Shown here: one piece after another, positions 9,777 through 19,662 of the stretch
Position numbering within the stretch: the first letter of the stretch is position 1
Layout of the letters: every line of letters begins with the position of its first letter
Assembly (NCBI GenBank): GCA_016185425.1
Contig: JACPNQ010000030.1
Coordinates: 1-64,000 of the forward strand
Origin: Acidobacteriota bacterium
Lineage (GTDB): Bacteria > Acidobacteriota > Terriglobia > Bryobacterales > Bryobacteraceae
DNA length: 64,000 nucleotides
Direction of reading: 5' to 3'
The notes under the pieces: model-generated
Seen by the model: the letters and a program-made list of their open reading frames with translations, nothing else
Database searches by the model: none
What the model was told of the DNA's origin: nothing
Made by a program: the position numbers and the translations under genes

Positions 9777-9893
9777 GGGCGACAATTATAGCGAGTCCGA
9801 AATCTTATTTACGCAGTTATCCGATGGTTTTCGAACTTATCGCCGGTAAGATAGTTTCCAAGGGCCCGCAACCACTTAGATCCGGAGGTGTCT

Positions 9894-11618
9894 ATGGAAC
9901 GTCGCACTCTTGTCCTTATGCTCTGGGCGGGAATGTACGCGGCGCCGGCGCAGCAAGCAGTTCCCAACCCGTCCGCGGCCGCCACCGATAAAACGACCGG
10001 AATTTTGGAAGGGCGCGTGGAGAATTCGAAGACCGGCGAGCCGGTGCGGCGTGTGAACTTAACGCTCCGCCCGTCGGGGCAGCAGGCAGGGGCCTCGGTT
10101 GGGCCGATGGTACCGGCGGCGCCGTATGTCGCGACGACCGACGCCGAGGGCAAGTTCCGCATCGAAAAGGTCGAACCGGGCAATTACTTTCTCATGGCGG
10201 AGCGCCAGGGATTCGTGCGGCAAACTTACGGCGGCCGGTCGATGTTCATGATGGGCACGACCATAACGGTTACGGCAGGGGCGGAGCTGAAGACTCTGCA
10301 CTTCAGGATGATTCCGCACGCCGTGCTCACTGGACGCGTTTTGGATGAGGAGGGTGAACCTCTTGCACGGACGCAGGTCCAGGTGTTGCACCGGCGTTAC
10401 TTCCAGGGCAAGACGCAGTTGGTGCCGACGGGCGGCGGGCAGTCGAACGATAACGGCGAATTCCGCATTGCGGATATCGCGCCCGGCCGTTATTGGATCG
10501 CCGTGGTGTACTACGGCCGCCAGATGTTCGGCGACGGTCCGGCGCGAAACACGGCGGGGCAGCCCGAGGAAGAGTACGTGACTACGTACTACCCGAGCGC
10601 CGCCGATGAGCCGGGAGCGCAACCACTCGAAGTGGAGGCCGGGCAACAGTTGAGTGGATTGGATGTGCGGATGCGAAAGTCGCGGGTGTACCGGATCAGC
10701 GGCAAAGTGACAGGCAGCGGTACGCCGCAACAGGTCCGAGTCATGCTCATGCCGCGGACTACTGGCGTTTCTATGGCAGGATTCGGCCGCAGCAGTTCGG
10801 CTGTAAAGGCGGACGGCACGTTCGAGGTCGGCGGCGCACAAACAGGAAGTTACAATCTAGTGGCGATGTCCTCACAGGGGATGATGAGCACGATGGGGCA
10901 GGTGGCCGTAGATGTGGGGCGGGAGAACGTCGAGGGCGTGGTGTTGACTCTTGGGAGCGCCAGCACGGTTCGGGGCGGCATTCGCGTGGATGGGAGCCTG
11001 GAGCAGTTAGAGAAAGCACAGGGCAAGAAGATCACGTTCGAGGCGGCGCGGATACAGCTTGCGCCGATTGACGGTATCGGCTTCAATGCGCCGAACTCCG
11101 CTCTGAAACCGGACGGTTCGTTCGTGATGGAGAACGCGGGAGCGCAGAAGTATCGAGTGAGCGTCTACAATCTTCCGGCGGGACTTTGGGTGAAGGCGGT
11201 TCGTTCCGGGGACCAGGACGTGACGGAGCAGGGGTTGGACCTTTCCTCGGGCGGCGGAGCGAATGTGGAAGTCGTGCTCGGAACGGGAGCCGGGCAAATC
11301 AGCGGGGCGGTGCAGGACGGAAAGCAAAAGCCGGCACCGGGAAGCATGGTCACATTGATTCCCGATCCGATGCTGAAGCACCTTTCGGATCGGGTCCGAC
11401 TGGTAATGGCGGATCAGAACGGGCAGTTTACGTTGAAAAGCATCACTCCAGGCGAGTACAAGCTCTATGCGTGGGAGGATGTGGAGCCGGGGAGCTATTC
11501 GGACCCTGAGTTTCTGAAGCCGCATGACGGGGCGGCGAAGAAGATGACGGTGAAGGCGGACGGGTCGGAACAAGTTACGGTGGTGCAGGTTTCGGCGGAG
11601 GCGACGAAGATACGGTAG
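9894..11618 (+). CDS. Carboxypeptidase-regulatory-like (CPD) domain protein, secreted
   Basis: About 574 residues: a signal peptide (to about residue 20, ending near APAQQ), then repeated beta-sandwich modules starting with ILEGRVENSKTGEPVRRVNLTLRP and recurring as HAVLTGRVLDEEGEPLARTQVQV. DNGEFRIADIAPGRYWI is the usual end of such a module. These domains serve in folding, binding or outer-membrane contexts; no enzymatic residues are seen. The ATG follows GGAGG by 5 nt. Near-copies of its last 144 nt, or shorter stretches, recur at 14445-14487, 15348-15491 and 16228-16245. Confidence 0.82.
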   Translation: MERRTLVLMLWAGMYAAPAQQAVPNPSAAATDKTTGILEGRVENSKTGEPVRRVNLTLRPSGQQAGASVGPMVPAAPYVATTDAEGKFRIEKVEPGNYFLMAERQGFVRQTYGGRSMFMMGTTITVTAGAELKTLHFRMIPHAVLTGRVLDEEGEPLARTQVQVLHRRYFQGKTQLVPTGGGQSNDNGEFRIADIAPGRYWIAVVYYGRQMFGDGPARNTAGQPEEEYVTTYYPSAADEPGAQPLEVEAGQQLSGLDVRMRKSRVYRISGKVTGSGTPQQVRVMLMPRTTGVSMAGFGRSSSAVKADGTFEVGGAQTGSYNLVAMSSQGMMSTMGQVAVDVGRENVEGVVLTLGSASTVRGGIRVDGSLEQLEKAQGKKITFEAARIQLAPIDGIGFNAPNSALKPDGSFVMENAGAQKYRVSVYNLPAGLWVKAVRSGDQDVTEQGLDLSSGGGANVEVVLGTGAGQISGAVQDGKQKPAPGSMVTLIPDPMLKHLSDRVRLVMADQNGQFTLKSITPGEYKLYAWEDVEPGSYSDPEFLKPHDGAAKKMTVKADGSEQVTVVQVSAEATKIR

Positions 11619-14048: not shown

Positions 14049-14564
14049 ATGCGGAATCAGAGTATTCTCTCAGCCGGTGAGTTTGCCGAGATCCGCGAAC
14101 TTGCGGAGGACGCCAGGCTATATACCGCCGGCCTCCGAGGCCAGCTTTTGGATGGTTTCGACGCCGATGCTGTCGCATCGATCACGGTAGACGGCAGTCC
14201 CTTAATCCAACTGAGCATTGACCTTCGCTGGGTAACCGATCACGAGCGCCTCGCCGATGGCTCCTTCCCCCTGCTTTTGTGGCTCAAGAACGCCGCACGC
14301 CTGACGAAGCCCTTTAGTCAGGGTGCTGCCTTCCAACAGTGGGTCGATATCATCTCAGCGCGGCCTGCTAGTTGGAATGGATCGGCTACAGCGCGAGTTC
14401 CGCACGAATTACCTCGCGGCGCGAAGAAGTTCTTCGGGCGGGACGACGCTGGTACAGGTGCCGGCGGAGGCGACGAAGGTGCGGTAGGGAATGCGGTTGT
14501 GTGCAGAGCGTACGGTGCGAAACGATGCCAGGAATCAAAGAGGCCGACACTACCGAGGAGCTGA
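14049..14564 (+). CDS. Protein with an effector-associated-domain-like N-terminus, C-terminally disrupted
   Basis: Residues 1-110 contain a helical region with LRGQLLDGFDADAVASI, ERLADGSFPLLLWLKNAARL and FQQWVDII. To me this resembles the effector-associated domains (EADs) that link sensors to effectors in bacterial conflict systems. That resemblance is from memory of the pattern and needs a profile search. After about residue 112 the frame is low-complexity and runs over a CPD-gene tail remnant read in another frame (14445-14487). The original effector part therefore appears to be lost or replaced. Whether the shortened protein is made is unclear. Confidence 0.4.
   Translation: MRNQSILSAGEFAEIRELAEDARLYTAGLRGQLLDGFDADAVASITVDGSPLIQLSIDLRWVTDHERLADGSFPLLLWLKNAARLTKPFSQGAAFQQWVDIISARPASWNGSATARVPHELPRGAKKFFGRDDAGTGAGGGDEGAVGNAVVCRAYGAKRCQESKRPTLPRS
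14445..14487 (+). pseudogene. CPD gene tail remnant, copy 1
   Basis: The frame from about 14445 reads TLVQVPAEATKVR and then a TAG. This matches the end of the CPD protein (VVQVSAEATKIR), with close agreement at DNA level over about 43 nt. It is out of frame with the EAD-like gene that runs across it. It marks the left end of the TA/remnant mosaic. Confidence 0.65.
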
Positions 14565-14615
14565 CCTCCTATTTATGAGCGGACACTTCAAGAAGCAAAC
14601 ATCGCGAGCAGGGAG

Positions 14616-15059
14616 GTGAGAATCTACCTGGACGCCTGCTGCCTGAGTCGCCTCACAGATGATCAGTCGCAGGCCAGAATTCGAGAGGAGGCCGAGGCCG
14701 TTGAGAAGATTCTAGCTGGAGTTCGGCGAAGCACGCTAGAACTGATCTCGAGCGAAGCGCTCGAAGACGAAGTACGCCGTAATCCTTCCCTGGAGCGGCG
14801 AGTGGAAGCGGAGACGCTCCTGTCACTGGCCGTGACGAGGATCGAGATTGACGATGCAACGATTCTCCGGGCGCGGCATGTGGTGCGTTTGGGTTACGGT
14901 CCGCTCGATGCGCTCCATGTTGCAGCGGCTGAGGCCGCAGGTGCAGATGTGATGCTGACCACCGACGACCGGTTGCTGAAGCGCACCGCCAGCAAGACAG
15001 GCAACCCTCGAGTTTCCGTGCAGAATCCGCTATCTTGGATAAAGGAGCAGGGAGTATGA
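14616..15059 (+). CDS. PIN-domain protein, probable TA toxin
   Basis: A 147-residue PIN ribonuclease-like protein. Acidic motif positions are visible in MRIYLDACC (Asp6), the Glu of SSEALEDEV, GPLDALHVAAAEA and MLTTDDRLL. The family cuts RNA, often tRNA. The start is GTG, next to GGGAGG; no ATG is nearby. Unlike classic VapBC, the small partner gene lies downstream, overlapping by 4 nt (ATGA). A 14-codon frame (14576-14619) ends on the start, but I see no antitoxin upstream. Confidence 0.75.
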   Translation: MRIYLDACCLSRLTDDQSQARIREEAEAVEKILAGVRRSTLELISSEALEDEVRRNPSLERRVEAETLLSLAVTRIEIDDATILRARHVVRLGYGPLDALHVAAAEAAGADVMLTTDDRLLKRTASKTGNPRVSVQNPLSWIKEQGV

Positions 15060-15274
15060 CCGCGATCGACCAGCTAACGGACGAGCAGTTTGAACGGCAC
15101 GCCCTTGAGGTCCTCAAACGTGAATTGGGGGCCGCCGGCTTGGCCCGGTTCCTACGGCTGGATCGTTCCGGAACCGGCGACTACACTCGCGACCGGGAGG
15201 AGTGGCAGAAGAGACTTACGTTAGATCAGATTCTTGAGTCTATTCGCGGGCACCGGCGGCAGACACGTCTTTAG
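15056..15274 (+). CDS. Small protein coupled to the PIN toxin, putative antitoxin
   Basis: A 72-residue, charged and probably helical protein, beginning MTAIDQLTDEQFERHALEV and including FLRLDRSGTGDYTRDREEW. Its ATG overlaps the PIN gene stop (ATGA), so translation is coupled. I know similar small proteins beside PIN genes but cannot name a family. The antitoxin role is inferred only from the pairing. No classic RHH, AbrB or Phd fold is evident. Confidence 0.5.
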   Translation: MTAIDQLTDEQFERHALEVLKRELGAAGLARFLRLDRSGTGDYTRDREEWQKRLTLDQILESIRGHRRQTRL

Positions 15275-15313
15275 GCCCTCCTGGCCGTTCAGGCGGCTAC
15301 CTAACGGCCAGCG

Positions 15314-15347
15314 TCGAGTTCTGCTACCTTTCGCAGCCGGAGGAGGT
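15314..15347 (-). repeat. rpiB 3'-end remnant, short copy
   Basis: These 34 nt match the stretch at 15992-16025 almost exactly, and match the 3' end of intact rpiB (from about 17001) less closely. Homology stops abruptly at 15347/15348, where a CPD tail begins. It is one of the boundaries of the repeating mosaic. Confidence 0.6.
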
Positions 15348-15491
15348 GAGGATGTGGAGCCTGGGGGCACTTCGGATCCTGAGTTTTTGAAGCTGCACGA
15401 TGGGGTGGCGAAGAGGGTTTCCGTGAAGGCGAATAGGTCGGAACAGGTGACGCTGGTGCAGGTGCCGGTGAAGGCGACGAAGGCGCGGTAG
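15348..15491 (+). pseudogene. CPD gene tail remnant, copy 2 (144 nt)
   Basis: Exactly 144 nt align without gaps to the last 144 nt of the CPD gene (11475-11618). The translation contains SDPEFLKLHDGVAKRVSVK and ends TLVQVPVKATKAR with the same TAG; the intact gene has SDPEFLKPHDGAAKKMTVK and VVQVSAEATKIR. There is no start codon context and no preceding domain, so it is a broken copy from this or another CPD paralogue. Confidence 0.8.
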
Positions 15492-15506
15492 GGGGCTGTG
15501 CGCCGC

Positions 15507-15758
15507 TTAGAGCATGTTGTCGTAGCCGGCATGAGTGCCGATCCAGAACCACACCATTCCTCCGGGAATCGATACCGCAAGAGCACGATGGTGCAGTCCG
15601 ACTCGCACTGACCAGTAGCGACCTATTCTCTTTAGGTGGAGTGAAGGGTGATGCGGATCGGTATTCAACAGCGCGAATGCCCTGTCCGCAAGTAGCCGGA
15701 TCCGATCCAGTAGGCGACGATACCGAAACCAGAAATCCGCCGTTGCCCGGTGGATCAC
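15507..15758 (-). CDS. RelE/ParE family toxin
   Basis: An 83-residue protein of the RelE/ParE fold. The helix with LADRAFALLNTDPHHPSLHLK is followed by the strands IGRYWSVRVGLHHRALAV and VWFWIGTHAGYDNML, with the Arg, Trp and His placements common in this subgroup. Such toxins either cut mRNA at the ribosome or poison gyrase; which applies here cannot be told. It starts at GTG overlapping the antitoxin stop (GTGA), the usual antitoxin-first order with coupled translation. Confidence 0.85.
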   Translation of the reverse strand: MIHRATADFWFRYRRLLDRIRLLADRAFALLNTDPHHPSLHLKRIGRYWSVRVGLHHRALAVSIPGGMVWFWIGTHAGYDNML

Positions 15759-15955
15759 AAATCGGTAGTCAAGCCTGCCTTGTGGTCCGCAAGAGCTGAT
15801 TCGGCCATTCGGTCGAGCTTACCGGTGCCGGCATCGGCTTCGATCTGGCGATCCCACATTTCGGCGTCATGCTGCGCAAACCATTCCCTAAGCGTTTTCA
15901 GCTCGGATTGATCCAGCGCGGCGATCTGCTCCTCAATTGATTCAACGCGGCTCAT
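15755..15955 (-). CDS. RelB-like antitoxin of the RelE/ParE pair
   Basis: A 66-residue protein: an acidic helical N-terminus (MSRVESIEEQIAALDQSEL), LREWFAQHDAEMWDRQIEAD, and a C-terminal tail, LADHKAGLTTDL, likely to wrap the toxin. The ATG at 15955 was chosen because GAGGAA precedes it and because the open frame further upstream runs through an rpiB remnant. Antitoxin and toxin overlap by 4 nt. The product should neutralise the toxin and repress the operon. Confidence 0.78.
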   Translation of the reverse strand: MSRVESIEEQIAALDQSELKTLREWFAQHDAEMWDRQIEADAGTGKLDRMAESALADHKAGLTTDL

Positions 15956-15990
15956 TTGAACTTCCTCTTTTAGCGTACATCGAGGCCAGC

Positions 15991-16223
15991 TTCGAGTTCT
16001 GCAACCTTTCGCAGCCGGCGGAGGTGGCAAGGCGCGTGGGTGAATCCGGCGGGGAGGAATGTGTCGACGAGGTCCTTTGCCACGGCGGGGCCTTGGGTGC
16101 GGCGCCGATGCAGAGGATGTTATGTGATCGTCTTCGGCGCCTTGCTTCGCTGAGAAGTGGTCACCGATGAGCGCGGCGTACACGCCTTTGACTTTGTTGG
16201 CGCAGACCGAGGCACCGACTCCG
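15991..16223 (-). pseudogene. rpiB: rpiB 3'-half remnant, long copy
   Basis: About 233 nt align to the 3' part of intact rpiB (17000-17236). Identical runs include 16054-16077 with 17063-17086 (24 nt) and 16182-16213 with 17193-17224 (32 nt). The minus-strand frame still reads [19 protein letters not shown] and [13 protein letters not shown], as in RpiB, then is frameshifted. The N-terminal half, with the catalytic Cys of CGSGVGAS, is missing. It ends abruptly next to a CPD tail fragment. Confidence 0.88.
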
Positions 16224-16227
16224 TGGG

Positions 16228-16245
16228 GCGGCGAAGGCGCGGTAG
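16228..16245 (+). repeat. CPD gene tail remnant, copy 3 (18 nt)
   Basis: The 18 nt match the end of copy 2 (15474-15491) with one mismatch, including the terminal CGGTAG. It directly follows the long rpiB remnant and precedes the VapC gene stop by 6 nt, the same order as in the unit at 15314-15491. On length alone it could be chance; its position makes it credible. Confidence 0.45.
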
Positions 16246-16251
16246 TTGGCG

Positions 16252-16683
16252 CTAGGAACTTGGCGCTATTTTCGCCAAGTAGTGTTCTACTCTGTCGGTT
16301 GTCCAAGTCGGCACTCCGCAGCCGAAGAAGTCGGTGTCCTCAGTCCAGATCGGGCAATTCAATGCGAGGGCGGTTGCGAGGATGGGCCAGTCGTTAACGT
16401 CGCGGCGCTCGATGAGGGCGCGGGCTTCCGCCTCGAATTGCGCATACGTCTCTGTGTCGATCGTCTGTATGAGGTTCGGGAGCAATTCGAAAATTTCGTA
16501 AGCTGCGACTTCCCGGATTTTCTGCCGTTCCAAGATTTTTGGTAGATGGTCGCGCGCTTCCTGGAACGCCGTGTCTGGCGTAACGAAATTTGCGCGCTCG
16601 GAATACTTGCGCAACAACAGGAGGGCCCGGGACCCGAGTACCGCACGAATCAAGATGTTCGCGTCAAGGACGAGCATTCTCAT
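16252..16683 (-). CDS. VapC-like PIN-domain toxin
   Basis: A 143-residue PIN-domain ribonuclease. Acidic positions: LVLDANILIRAV (Asp7), the Glu in TAFQEARDHL, the Asp of RRDVNDWPILATALAL, and IWTEDTDFF. The ATG at 16683 lies 5 nt after the stop of the Phd-like antitoxin gene, so the two form one operon. The target is probably tRNA or rRNA, as in other VapC proteins, but cannot be predicted. Confidence 0.85.
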   Translation of the reverse strand: MRMLVLDANILIRAVLGSRALLLLRKYSERANFVTPDTAFQEARDHLPKILERQKIREVAAYEIFELLPNLIQTIDTETYAQFEAEARALIERRDVNDWPILATALALNCPIWTEDTDFFGCGVPTWTTDRVEHYLAKIAPSS

Positions 16684-16688
16684 CGTCT

Positions 16689-16949
16689 CTATTTACGCCG
16701 CTCGCGGCGCAGTTGCTTGAACTCCTCGACGATCTCATCTTCGCTAATTCCTGCTTCGGCAAGCAGCGCCTGCATCTTTTCGCCCGCAACACGCAAGGCC
16801 TCCAAGACAGCCTGACTTGGGCGGGGTTTTGTTGGCACGTAGATACCGATCGTTGCGCCGTGGCGAGTGATTGCTACTGGATCTTTCGATTCGAGGTAGG
16901 TTGACAGGTGCTCTCGAAATTCCCGGATTCCGACTTTGGTTGGCTCCAT
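16689..16949 (-). CDS. Phd/YefM-type antitoxin of the VapC-like toxin
   Basis: An 86-residue protein. MEPTKVGIREFREHLSTYL and DPVAITRHGATIGIYVP form the Phd/YefM DNA-binding fold. The C-terminal charged helix (AGISEDEIVEEFKQLRRER) should bind the toxin. The ATG at 16949 follows AAGGAGG on the minus strand; the frame is open upstream but lacks family similarity. A palindrome just upstream is a plausible autoregulatory operator. Confidence 0.85.
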   Translation of the reverse strand: MEPTKVGIREFREHLSTYLESKDPVAITRHGATIGIYVPTKPRPSQAVLEALRVAGEKMQALLAEAGISEDEIVEEFKQLRRERRK

Positions 16950-16960
16950 CGTGCCTCCTT

Positions 16961-16970
16961 GTGTGTACAC
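16961..16970 (-). promoter_or_regulatory. Palindromic operator candidate of the Phd-VapC operon
   Basis: TGTGTACACA is a perfect 10-bp palindrome 12 nt upstream of the antitoxin start. On the minus strand it lies just downstream of TATCAT, a possible -10. The placement fits autorepression by the antitoxin. Confidence 0.5.
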
Positions 16971-16988
16971 AATGATAACACAATTGCC

Positions 16989-17438
16989 TTACTGGGCGGA
17001 TTCGAGTTTGGCAACTTTTCCCAGACGGCGGAGGTGGCGAGGCGCGTCGCTGAATTCGGCGGCGAGGAATGTGTCGACGAGGTCCTTCGCCACTTCGGGG
17101 CCTTGTGTGCGGCCGCCGATGCAGAGGATGTTCATGTGGTCGTCTTCGACGCCTTGCTTCGCTGAGAAGTGATCGGCGATGAGCGCGGCGTGGACGCCTT
17201 TGACTTTGTTGGCGCAGACCGAGGCGCCGACTCCGCTGCCGCAGACGGCGATGCCGCGCACCACGTCACCGGCGGCGACGGCTTCCGCCAGCGGGATCAC
17301 GAAGTCGGGGTAATCGTCGTCCTCTTTGAGGGTGAATGCGCCGAAATCGACGACTTCGTGGCCGGCGGCTTTGAGGTGGTCCACGAGCGTTTCCTTCAGG
17401 TTGAAGCCGCCGTGGTCGGTGGCGATTCCGATCCTCAT
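16989..17438 (-). CDS. rpiB: Ribose-5-phosphate isomerase B
   Basis: A 149-residue RpiB/LacAB family enzyme interconverting ribose 5-phosphate and ribulose 5-phosphate in the pentose phosphate pathway. [16 protein letters not shown] carries the phosphate/substrate His, and [18 protein letters not shown] carries the catalytic Cys. [20 protein letters not shown] is also typical. The start overlaps the pgi stop by 4 nt (ATGA), so it is the last gene of a sugar-phosphate operon. Its 3' half is duplicated at 15991-16223, and a short end piece at 15314-15347. Confidence 0.95.
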
Positions 17439-19060
17439 GGCTTGGCCTTCCGGTAGCGGCGGATGAGGTTGTTGGTCGAGCTGTCGTGGGTTAGGTTGGG
17501 CTCTTTTGCGGACTCGAGCTCGGGGATGATTCGGTTGGCGAGGACTTTGCCTAGTTCGACGCCCCATTGGTCGAAGGAGTCGATGCCCCAGAGAATGCCT
17601 TGGGTGAAGACGGCGTGCTCGTAGAGGGCGACGAGCTTGCCGAGAGTGGCGGGGTCGAGGCGGTCGGCCCAGATCATGTTCGATGGTCGGTTGCCTTCGA
17701 AGACGCGATGGGGTACGAGCCACGCTGCCGTGCCGCCGGCTTCGACCTGCTCGCGGGTTTTGCCGAAGGCGAGGGCTTCGGCTTGGGCGAGGACGTTGGC
17801 GATGAGGATATCGTGGTGGCGGCCGAGCGGGTTGAGCGAATGGCTGAACGCGATAAAGTCACAGGGGATCATCCGCGTGCCCTGGTGGATCAGTTGGTAG
17901 AAGGAGTGCTGGCCGTTGGTGCCGGGTTCGCCCCAGTAGATCACCCCGGTGTCGTAGTCGACTGGCGTGCCGTCGAGCGTGATGTATTTGCCATTGCTCT
18001 CCATGGTTAGCTGTTGGAGGTAGGCCGGGAAGCGTTTCAGGTATTGCTCATACGGCAGGACAGCCACAGTCGCCGCGCCGAAGAAGTTGCCGTACCAGAT
18101 GCCGAGGAGGCCCATGAGCACGGGCAGGTTTTGCGCGAATGGCGCGGTGCGGAAGTGCTCGTCCATTTCGTGGAATCCGGCGAGGAGTTGGCGGAAGCCG
18201 CCAGGGCCGATGGCGAGCATCGTCGAGAGGCCGATGGCCGAGTCCATGGAGTAGCGGCCACCGACCCAGTCCCAGAAGCCGAACATGTTGGCGGTGTCGA
18301 TACCAAATTTTCCGACCTCGGCGGCGTTGGTGGAGACGGCTACGAAGTGTTTGGCGACCGAGGCCGCGCCGCCGCCGAGACCGGCGATGGACCAGTCGCG
18401 GGCGGTGTGGGCGTTGGTCATGGTCTCGATCGTCGTGAAGGTCTTCGAGGAGACGATGAAGAGGGTTTCGGCGGGGTTGAGGTCGTGAACGGCTTCGGCG
18501 AAGTCGGTGCTGTCGACGTTGGAGACGTAGCGGAATGTTAGTGCTCGATCGGAGTAACTACGAAGCGCTTCGTAGGCCATGACGGGACCGAGGTCGGATC
18601 CGCCGATTCCGATGTTGACGACGTTGCGGATGCGCTTGCCGGTGTGGCCGGTCCATGCGCCGGAGCGGACACGATCCGCGAAGGCGGCCATCTTGTCGAG
18701 GACCTCGTGGACGTCAGGGACTACGTTGCGGCCGTCGACGAGAATGGTGGAGCCCTTCGGGGCGCGGAGGGCGGTGTGGAGGACGGCGCGCTTTTCGGTG
18801 ACGTTGATCTTCTCGCCTGAGAACATCGCCTCGATGCCGGCGGCAAGGCCGGACTCTTCGGCGAGCTGGACAAGGAGCTTTATGGTTTCGGCGGTGAGAC
18901 GGTTCTTGGAGTAGTCGAGGAAAAGACCGGCGGCTTCGGCGGTGAGGGTGGCGCCGCGGGTTGGATCGGCGGCAAAGAGGTCACGGAGATGCATGGGGCC
19001 GACTTCGTCGAAGTGGGCTTCGAGGGCCTTCCAGGCCGCGCGTTCGGTGAGGGTTGGCAT
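17435..19060 (-). CDS. pgi: Glucose-6-phosphate isomerase
   Basis: A 541-residue enzyme of glycolysis/gluconeogenesis converting glucose 6-phosphate to fructose 6-phosphate. [18 protein letters not shown] is the sugar-phosphate-binding SIS core; [18 protein letters not shown] and [18 protein letters not shown] are the PGI signatures, the latter with catalytic Glu and His. DQWGVELGK near the end carries the final catalytic Lys. The ATG at 19060 follows AGGAG; an upstream in-frame ATG at 19093 lies inside the phosphatase gene. The start touches the phosphatase stop (1-nt overlap), so translation is coupled. Confidence 0.96.
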
Positions 19061-19662
19061 TAGGTACTCCTGTGGAAATAAGTTTCGTTCCATAGCTGGA
19101 CGACGGGCCGGGTGAGATCGTGCTCATAGCCGAGAGCGCTAAGGCTGGCAGTGCTGAGTTGGAACGAGAGGCAGCTTGGGTGCAGTTCGAGGCCGATCCA
19201 GCGGGTGGCGAGGACGCGGAGGAAGTGGCCGCTGGAGAAGACGAGTGCGCCGGCGTTGAGCGAGCGGAGACGGGCGACGACGCGGTCGGCACGGGCGCTG
19301 ATTTGATCGACGGATTCGCCGTTGGGTGCGCCATCGCGGAAGAGTTTCCAGTTGGGCGTTTTGGCGCGGATCTCGGCGCTACGAAGCCCTTCGTAGTCAC
19401 CGTAATCCCATTCGACGAGATCGGGGTCGGTTTCGGCGACGGCGCCGAAGCCGGCGATGTCACAGGTGCGGGAGGCGCGTTGGAGAGGACTGGTCCAGAC
19501 TCGCGCGAATGCGAGGCCGGCGAGACGCTCACCGAGTTTGACGGCGGCGGCTTCGCCTTCGGGGAGTAGAGGAAGATCCGTAAGTCCGGTGTGCTGGCCG
19601 CTGCGGGACCATGCGGTCTCGCCGTGGCGGGCGAGGTAGATGGTGGGAAGCGTGGTGCTCAT
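19060..19662 (-). CDS. Histidine phosphatase family protein
   Basis: A 200-residue phosphoglycerate mutase-like phosphatase. [17 protein letters not shown] contains the phosphorylated His of the RHG motif. [22 protein letters not shown] (Glu proton donor) and [14 protein letters not shown] (second catalytic His) follow in the family order. It could hydrolyse sugar phosphates, which fits its place between an aldolase and pgi; a true mutase is less likely because the protein is short. The ATG at 19662 overlaps the aldolase stop (TAATG). Confidence 0.85.

What the first reader, a model, noticed from the sequence alone, without database searches (positions are those of the whole stretch)
14445..17236. 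Repeating mosaic of TA modules and rpiB/CPD gene tails downstream of rpiB
Reading from intact rpiB leftwards: TA module 3 (Phd-VapC, 16252-16949), a CPD tail (16228-16245), an rpiB tail (15991-16223), TA module 2 (RelBE-like, 15507-15955), a CPD tail (15348-15491), a short rpiB tail (15314-15347), TA module 1 (PIN plus partner, 14616-15274), and a CPD tail (14445-14487). Each TA module is thus followed by an older copy of the rpiB 3' end. The order is the same each time although the TA families differ. This is what repeated entry of TA-bearing cassettes at the rpiB 3' end would leave, each restoring the gene end and pushing the old one outwards. No integrase or transposase is present, so homologous recombination using the tail is an alternative. 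I do not know a described system of this kind.
Basis: partly seen in the sequence, partly recalled or inferred. Interest (0 to 1): 0.88.

Follow-up and report, generated by a model that had tools for sequence, protein, structure and literature searches.

The report
Stacked toxin-antitoxin genes with gene-tail relics
Three unrelated toxin-antitoxin gene pairs are stacked beside a sugar-metabolism gene in a bacterium, separated by broken copies of the two neighbouring genes' ends, which looks like a fossil record of how such addictive genes pile up in chromosomes.

Summary
The mosaic is real. Left to right it is (CPD tail - TA - rpiB tail) three times, ending in intact rpiB; both inner junctions join rpiB interior to CPD interior. 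Even the 19-nt CPD tail exceeds chance. The TAs are three families. No integrase or transposase was found in 9.8-20.4 kb, and tail lengths vary (rpiB 43, 240; CPD 43, 144, 19), which argues against site-specific integration. Best reading: successive accretion of alleles of a CPD-TA-rpiB interval, each by one crossover in rpiB plus one illegitimate joint, leaving the old rpiB end joined to the incoming CPD end. 'Intact gene - TA - copy of its tail with stop codon' recurs in relatives at a GFO/IDH gene, infC and a CPD-like gene; a same-genus genome lacks TA and copy at the first. Direct repeats flank 9 of 47 TA loci against 2 of 147 control loci; only three of the nine are clear gene tails. Closest known: insertion of restriction-modification genes with long target duplication, and homology-facilitated illegitimate recombination. 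A divergence gradient with distance is not shown; no one- or two-unit form was found; the addiction idea is untested. New variant of a known kind.

The parts
9888..11618 (+). Intact gene with CarboxypepD_reg (CPD) domains; source family of the CPD tails
   Evidence: Pfam PF13620 E 2e-33; homologue at 51% in G014 of the same genus, 5.3 kb from gpi in the same relative orientation
14049..14440 (+). EAD5-domain ORF left of the first CPD tail; its frame runs on through the tail to 14564
   Evidence: PF19957 E 2.5e-12; ORF list and gene call
14445..14487 (+). CPD tail 1, ends at TAG stop
   Evidence: blastn 86% E 1e-7 to 11577-11618; 91% to CPD tail 2
14616..15059 (+). TA1 toxin-like PIN protein
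   Evidence: PF01850 E 5.6e-10; 64-78% identity in the seven unbroken copies among nine fetched TA1 loci
15056..15274 (+). TA1 partner, unassigned family, conserved next to the PIN gene
   Evidence: no Pfam match; homologues in 43 of 236 family genomes at E<=1e-10, own genome included
15306..15348 (-). rpiB tail 1 (last about 43 nt), joined directly to CPD tail 2
   Evidence: 93% to rpiB tail 2, 74% to intact rpiB
15348..15491 (+). CPD tail 2 (last 144 nt), ends at TAG stop
   Evidence: 80.6% E 3e-33
15507..15758 (-). TA2 toxin-like, ParE-like domain
   Evidence: PF24732 E 1.7e-5, just above cut-off
15755..15955 (-). TA2 partner (antitoxin by position); ATG 14 nt after the stop of rpiB tail 2
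   Evidence: ORF and gene call; no Pfam match
15984..16223 (-). rpiB tail 2 (last 240 nt) with two single-base deletions; reads KVAELEAGLDVR* at its end, a length seen in 6 of 13 relatives
   Evidence: 89.8% E 2e-86; alignments
16227..16245 (+). CPD tail 3 (19 nt), ends at TAG stop
   Evidence: pattern search, 0.05 matches expected in the window
16252..16683 (-). TA3 toxin-like PIN_2 protein
   Evidence: PF10130 E 9.5e-44
16689..16949 (-). TA3 antitoxin, Phd/YefM-like
   Evidence: PF02604 E 0.0029, below cut-off; found beside the PIN_2 gene in 11 fetched loci
16989..17438 (-). Intact rpiB, ends KVAKLESAQ*
   Evidence: PF02502 E 7e-48; best relatives 70-78% in other genera
17435..19093 (-). gpi (phosphoglucose isomerase), overlaps the rpiB start
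   Evidence: PF00342 E 7e-217

Best explanation
The array is a stack of three alleles of one convergent interval (CPD gene - toxin-antitoxin module - rpiB). In each accretion, incoming DNA carrying a CPD end, a new TA and an rpiB end recombined homologously inside rpiB, so rpiB stayed whole; its other side, broken somewhere inside CPD, was joined without homology to the resident's rpiB interior. That leaves the observed order: new rpiB, new TA, end of the new CPD joined to the end of the old rpiB, old TA. A linear fragment (homology-facilitated illegitimate recombination) or a circle that had lost part of its homologous stretch (single crossover) gives the same product. Shown: the anatomy, variable tail lengths, unrelated TAs, no recombinase found nearby, recurrence of gene - TA - tail copy at three other genes in relatives. 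Inferred: direction and order of events, that the incoming DNA came from other strains, and that loss of a TA by ordinary allelic replacement is counter-selected so that additions survive.
For: Junctions rpiB|CPD at 15348 and 16223/16227 with different break points each time. Tails 1 and 2 of rpiB share 8 differences from intact rpiB in 43 nt, one of them at codon 140 where 11 of 13 relatives side with intact, which suggests that the two tails share an ancestor other than the present intact end. rpiB tail 2 ends 9 residues after KVA, as in 6 of 13 relatives, intact rpiB 6 residues after it, as in 0 of 13. CPD tails have L and P at two positions where intact CPD has V and S; of four relatives aligned, four have the L and three the P. 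In 1.55 Mb of this genome I recognised such local tail copies at three places only: the mosaic, an icd gene and a radical-SAM gene. In relatives: GFO/IDH gene - TA1 - 99-nt tail copy ending exactly at the stop (L332), infC - PemK toxin and an upstream ORF - 47-nt copy (L381, from a one-contig genome), CPD-like gene - RHH-antitoxin-like, UPF0175 and PemK genes - 276-nt copy (L383). Same-genus G134 has the GFO/IDH gene at 90% with one tail, and the DNA search of G134 gave 15 matches, none in the TA1 stretch. Direct repeats flank 9 of 47 TA loci and 2 of 147 control loci, p 6e-5; inverted repeats 2 of 47. Single crossover with a shortened circle gave duplications of 109-950 bp of a gene end in E. 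coli (PMC3240628, passages).
Against: No one- or two-unit version of the array was found; the 18 other same-genus genomes, several of them incomplete, have no match to this rpiB at E<=1e-48. The substitution pattern of rpiB tail 2 (12 of 24 at third positions) rejects neither 'diverged as a working gene' (p 0.30) nor 'decayed copy' (p 0.09); that of CPD tail 2 (11 of 28) fits plain decay (p 0.55). The divergence step inside rpiB expected of a hybrid gene is not significant (8/118 against 16/118, p 0.13). Of the nine TA loci with flanking repeats only three are clear gene tails; on those alone 3 of 47 against 0 of 147, p 0.014. Cargo between gene and tail copy is not always a TA (radical-SAM gene, L333; the icd cargo is unassigned). 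Competence and end-joining genes of this genome were not checked.
Confidence: 0.6

Rival explanations
1. Insertion with long target duplication: TA modules enter by an unknown non-homologous route that copies some 40-400 bp of the target, as proposed for restriction-modification genes; gene ends are hit because only there does the duplication keep the gene whole.
For: Variable long direct repeats flank TAs in several genomes; addiction-type cargo; one case (L399) duplicates 42 nt just after a stop codon rather than a tail. Described for restriction-modification systems (PMC3874152, PMC3031569, PMC1643837, passages).
Against: Does not by itself explain the rpiB|CPD junctions or why CPD tails travel with each TA. 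The duplicated stretches of CPD, rpiB, GFO/IDH, infC, icd, the radical-SAM gene and L333 stop within about 12 nt of the stop codon, whereas a blind duplication should often run further downstream; L383 does, by 67 nt.
Confidence: 0.2
2. Tandem duplication of the CPD tail - spacer - rpiB tail segment within one genome, followed by separate entry of three different TAs into the three spacers.
For: A tandem duplication alone makes an rpiB|CPD junction; inter-copy distances are short.
Against: Needs three further independent TA insertions, exactly one per copy; spacers share no sequence beyond the gene ends although the tails still align at 74-93%; break points differ between the two junctions.
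Confidence: 0.1
3. Remnants of site-specific integrative elements that target gene 3' ends, with integrases lost (as prophage e14 in icd or SCC elements, the latter recalled).
For: Gene-end restoration is typical of them; e14 separates a 163-bp icd end (PMC6379469, passage), and this genome also carries a displaced icd tail.
Against: No integrase found in 9.8-20.4 kb; repeat lengths 43 and 240 nt at the same gene, unless tail 1 was cut later; different target genes; each TA module is under 1 kb.
Confidence: 0.06
4. Assembly chimera of a draft genome.
For: The genome is an unnamed draft in 47 contigs.
Against: Tails differ from their sources by 10-26%, too much for repeat-collapse errors; base composition is steady apart from small dips in TA2 and TA3; the gene - TA - tail layout is also present in a one-contig genome (L381).
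Confidence: 0.04

Closest known systems
Insertion with long target duplication of restriction-modification genes (Nobusato et al. 2000, not read; cited in PMC3874152, PMC3031569, PMC1643837, passages read)
   Same: Addictive gene pair flanked by long, variable direct repeats of the target, seen by genome comparison
   Different: Here the cargo is type II TA by family, the repeat in the clear cases is a gene's 3' end with its stop codon, three events are stacked, and the ends of both neighbouring genes are involved
Homology-facilitated illegitimate recombination and the T6SS immunity-gene arrays of Vibrio explained by it (PMC5361080, passages; PMC3240628, abstract and passages; PMC2884548, passages)
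   Same: One homologous and one illegitimate joint; successive additions push older genes outwards and leave relics
   Different: There an effector is replaced and its immunity gene kept at a dedicated locus; here whole TA pairs accumulate beside a housekeeping gene and the relics are ends of the neighbours
Prophage e14 in icd and other gene-end-targeting integrative elements (PMC6379469, passage)
   Same: Element supplies a new gene end, old end is displaced
   Different: Site-specific integration; neither an integrase nor a constant repeat length was found here
TA islands of unlike classes noted by Makarova et al. 2009 (PMC2701414, passages)
   Same: Unlike TA pairs clustered more closely than chance, which that paper says tandem duplication cannot explain
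   Different: The passages read do not speak of flanking gene-end relics; here they record borders and order

Membership tests
Insertion with long target duplication | Cargo flanked by direct repeats of tens to hundreds of bp that are single copy in an empty relative | tested here: met
   GFO/IDH locus: 99-nt copies flank TA1 in G133; same-genus G134 has one tail and no TA1-stretch match. For rpiB itself no empty close relative was available.
Insertion with long target duplication | Cargo is a restriction-modification system | tested here: not met
   Cargo is TA-like by Pfam and gene pairing
Homology-facilitated illegitimate recombination | One junction inside a homologous gene kept intact, the other without homology at varying positions | tested here: inconclusive
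   Junction positions vary and show at most 1-2 bp of shared sequence by eye; the homologous crossover inside rpiB is not demonstrated (p 0.13)
Gene-end-targeting integrative elements | Integrase gene or remnant | tested here: not met
   None among genes called in 9.8-20.4 kb
Gene-end-targeting integrative elements | Fixed crossover point | tested here: not met
   rpiB tails 43 and 240 nt, though later truncation of tail 1 cannot be excluded
Type II toxin-antitoxin modules | Two-gene pair with a known toxin fold, pair conserved and patchily distributed | tested here: met
   Both TA1 genes in 9 and both TA3 genes in 11 fetched loci, at least three of the copies broken; TA1 partner in 43 of 236 family genomes. 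For TA2 only a DNA match across both genes in G260 and partial ones elsewhere.
Type II toxin-antitoxin modules | Toxin poisons the cell and the partner neutralises it | not testable with these tools
   needs expression assays

The most novel reading that the evidence does not exclude
Addiction turns allelic replacement into accretion: because a recombinant that swaps one TA for another loses the resident antitoxin and dies, only rare illegitimate products that add the new TA survive, so TA-bearing intervals grow into stacks whose gene-tail relics give the order of arrival. This would explain TA islands of unlike families in bacteria generally.
Probability: 0.3. Interest if true: 0.85.

Novelty: new variant of a known kind. 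Interest (0 to 1): 0.62.

Why it matters
How unlike toxin-antitoxin pairs come to sit side by side in chromosomes is open; the 2009 survey (PMC2701414, passage) offered preferential incorporation or transfer of multi-pair cassettes. Gene-tail relics mark the borders and order of each arrival, so the question becomes countable in public genomes. The count begun here (9 of 47 TA loci against 2 of 147 controls) hints at a general route in this family of bacteria, and it would link TA spread to the long-target-duplication route described for restriction-modification genes.

Tried and rejected
An rpiB-tail-like hit in G018 (47%) lies about 55 bp from its contig end (contig length 16043) and is probably an ordinary cut gene. 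The 29-bp repeats near 90.7 and 92.9 kb of the contig sit between genes and look to me like a tRNA-end fragment (recalled, not tested). Many of the other local repeats in the 1.55-Mb survey lie inside long or adjacent genes and look like paralogous genes or repeated domains. The paralogue filter hid two pairs (icd, and the 144-nt CPD tail), which I take. Among the nine TA loci with flanking repeats, L351, L352, L354, L379, L399 and L402 are not clear gene tails; L333 has a 396-nt tail copy but the TA lies after it, so it was not counted. Of the two control loci with repeats, L156 has 25 nt inside genes and L044 74 nt inside long frames. Searches used wrong gene borders for some cut CPD-control loci and gave 2 of 45 (L156 and a false L165); one search is the corrected count, and replaces them. 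Loci dropped there for flanks under 1 kb: TA1 5 of 29, PemK 7 of 30, PadR 4 of 30, rpiB 3 of 29, CPD 11 of 47, gpi 21 of 80. With short flanks allowed gpi gave 1 of 76. TA against PadR alone: p 0.014. Among 80 gpi loci of genome contigs only L040 and L045 also show rpiB at tblastn E<=1e-8. A hybrid-gene signal and a third-position test were inconclusive. PMC3784515 and PMC2654758 were seen as passages and add nothing decisive.
Full report
Setting. The window is part of contig C34 of an unnamed draft genome of 6.64 Mb in 47 contigs. One same-genus genome, G002, has its gpi at the same place, on a contig of the same length, as a public record titled Candidatus Sulfopaludibacter sp. SbA3, so the host is an acidobacterium of that kind (inference).

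Observation. The self-comparison gives as strong pairs rpiB tail 2, the 144-nt CPD tail 2, CPD tail 1 and rpiB tail 1. In the wider survey these are the five strongest pairs printed for contig C34 (pairs under 400 nt). CPD tail 3 is short, but the 19-base end of tail 2 with up to three mismatches occurs exactly four times in 64 kb, at the four CPD ends, against 0.05 expected. Left to right the order is CPD tail 1, TA1, rpiB tail 1 joined to CPD tail 2, TA2, rpiB tail 2 joined to CPD tail 3, TA3, intact rpiB. The three spacers share no recognisable sequence beyond the gene ends. The TAs are PIN plus an unassigned partner, ParE-like plus an unassigned partner, and PIN_2 plus a Phd-like gene. TA2 and TA3 start 14 and 39 nt after the stop of rpiB tail 2 and of intact rpiB, on the same strand.

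What the tails are. rpiB tail 2 differs from intact rpiB at 24 of 236 aligned sites plus two one-base deletions; it is farther than intact rpiB from each of 13 of 13 related rpiB genes, so it has decayed. It nevertheless ends at a length seen in 6 of 13 relatives, while the length of intact rpiB is seen in none of the 13. Tails 1 and 2 share eight differences from intact rpiB in 43 nt; at codon 140, 11 of 13 relatives side with intact, at codon 144 nine side with the tails. The CPD tails likewise have residues that relatives have and intact CPD lacks. This suggests, on few sites, that the present intact 3' ends are not the direct source of the tails.

Relatives at the locus. CPD and gpi are 5.3 kb apart and in the same relative orientation in G014 of the same genus, with other genes and no rpiB between. 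This rpiB has no match at E<=1e-48 in the 18 other same-genus genomes, several incomplete; its nearest relatives, 70-78%, are in other genera, and tblastn at E<=1e-5 found no CPD relative in the loci fetched around 12 of them. No one- or two-unit version of the array was found.

How rare is it. In 1.55 Mb of the same genome, of 1235 gene tails searched, the edge-matching downstream copies that passed the paralogue filter were those of CPD, rpiB and one radical-SAM gene; the filter hid the icd pair and the 144-nt CPD pair, which searches show. None of the three gene-start hits printed was the mirror image. The icd copy aligns, with gaps, to the last part of icd and 6 nt beyond its stop position, score 98 against at most 42 in 500 shuffles; the stop itself is changed in the copy. 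Between lie two ORFs, one with a weak match to the CapP family. The radical-SAM gene has a 44-nt core tail copy across a 574-residue gene without Pfam match. Taking each of 999 genes up to 2.5 kb on seven contigs as focus, 9 are flanked by direct repeats within 1.5 kb; 6 of the 9 belong to the mosaic.

Recurrence with TAs. Twenty loci around TA1 and TA3 homologues, taken from the listing before repeats were looked at, gave 6 of 20 with flanking direct repeats, flanks of 200 nt or more allowed. In a second, partly overlapping set with 1-kb minimum flanks and corrected borders: TA1 4 of 24, PemK 5 of 23; controls PadR 0 of 26, other rpiB 0 of 26, CPD homologues 1 of 36, gpi 1 of 59; together 9 of 47 against 2 of 147, Fisher p 6e-5; inverted repeats 2 of 47 at TAs and 2 of 147 at controls. 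Three of the nine are plainly 'gene - TA - copy of the gene's tail with its stop': a GFO/IDH oxidoreductase (99 nt, 93%, ending exactly at the stop), infC (47 nt, 98%, in a genome of one contig), and a CPD-like gene (276 nt, 88%, running 67 nt past the stop into the start of an antitoxin-like gene, with UPF0175 and PemK genes between). On these alone, 3 of 47 against 0 of 147 gives p 0.014. L333 has a 396-nt tail copy with TA1 just after it. In G134, same genus as G133, the GFO/IDH gene is present at 90% with one tail, and none of its 15 DNA matches lies in the TA1 stretch.

Mechanism. Each unit's outer border is a break inside CPD joined to a break inside the old rpiB, at different places each time; the inner border keeps rpiB whole. 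One homologous crossover plus one illegitimate joint makes this. In E. coli, an assay for such events gave mostly (56 of 60 clones by PCR) partial duplications of the gene end, 109-950 bp in 14 sequenced, ascribed to single crossover with a circle that had lost part of its homology (PMC3240628, passages); that product has the layout seen here. Whether addiction selects additions over replacements is a proposal, not a result.

Known kinds. For restriction-modification genes, insertion with long and variable target duplications has been described (PMC3874152, PMC3031569, PMC1643837, passages; the original 2000 paper was not read and Furuta 2010 is not held). Successive displacement by homology-facilitated illegitimate recombination was proposed for T6SS immunity-gene arrays (PMC5361080, passages). 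In the listings of my searches (capped lists of an open-access library) and in the passages read I saw no report of TA modules flanked by copies of a neighbour's gene end; I read no whole paper.

Verdict. A real, unusual and informative array; the parts are known kinds, while the combination and its recurrence at TAs were not seen in what I searched: new variant of a known kind.

Noticed in passing
L249 13183-16558 (contig C4 of the window's genome): icd followed by two ORFs (the second with a weak CapP match) and a decayed copy of the icd tail at 16400-16558; recalls prophage e14 in E. coli icd.
   Followed up: partly
L286 5644-8303 (contig C8 25644-28303): Radical-SAM gene (QueE-like by my reading), a 574-residue gene of no Pfam family, then a copy of the radical-SAM gene's tail.
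   Followed up: partly
window 14049-14564: EAD5-domain ORF directly left of CPD tail 1; its frame continues through the CPD tail, so the gene may be truncated by that junction. A related stretch lies on contig C40 (74%).
   Followed up: no
L331 3968-5807: A TA1 locus in G259 with several broken and duplicated TA1 pieces, one 204-nt duplication at 99% identity, suggesting recent rearrangement.
   Followed up: no
L333 1648-5346: Metallo-beta-lactamase-fold gene with a 396-nt copy of its tail (94%); a gene of unknown family lies between and TA1 follows the copy.
   Followed up: partly
contig C34 90712-90740 and 92890-92918 (L277): 29-bp direct repeat at 97% flanking a 648-residue gene, perhaps tRNA-end remnants of an integrative element (not tested).
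   Followed up: no
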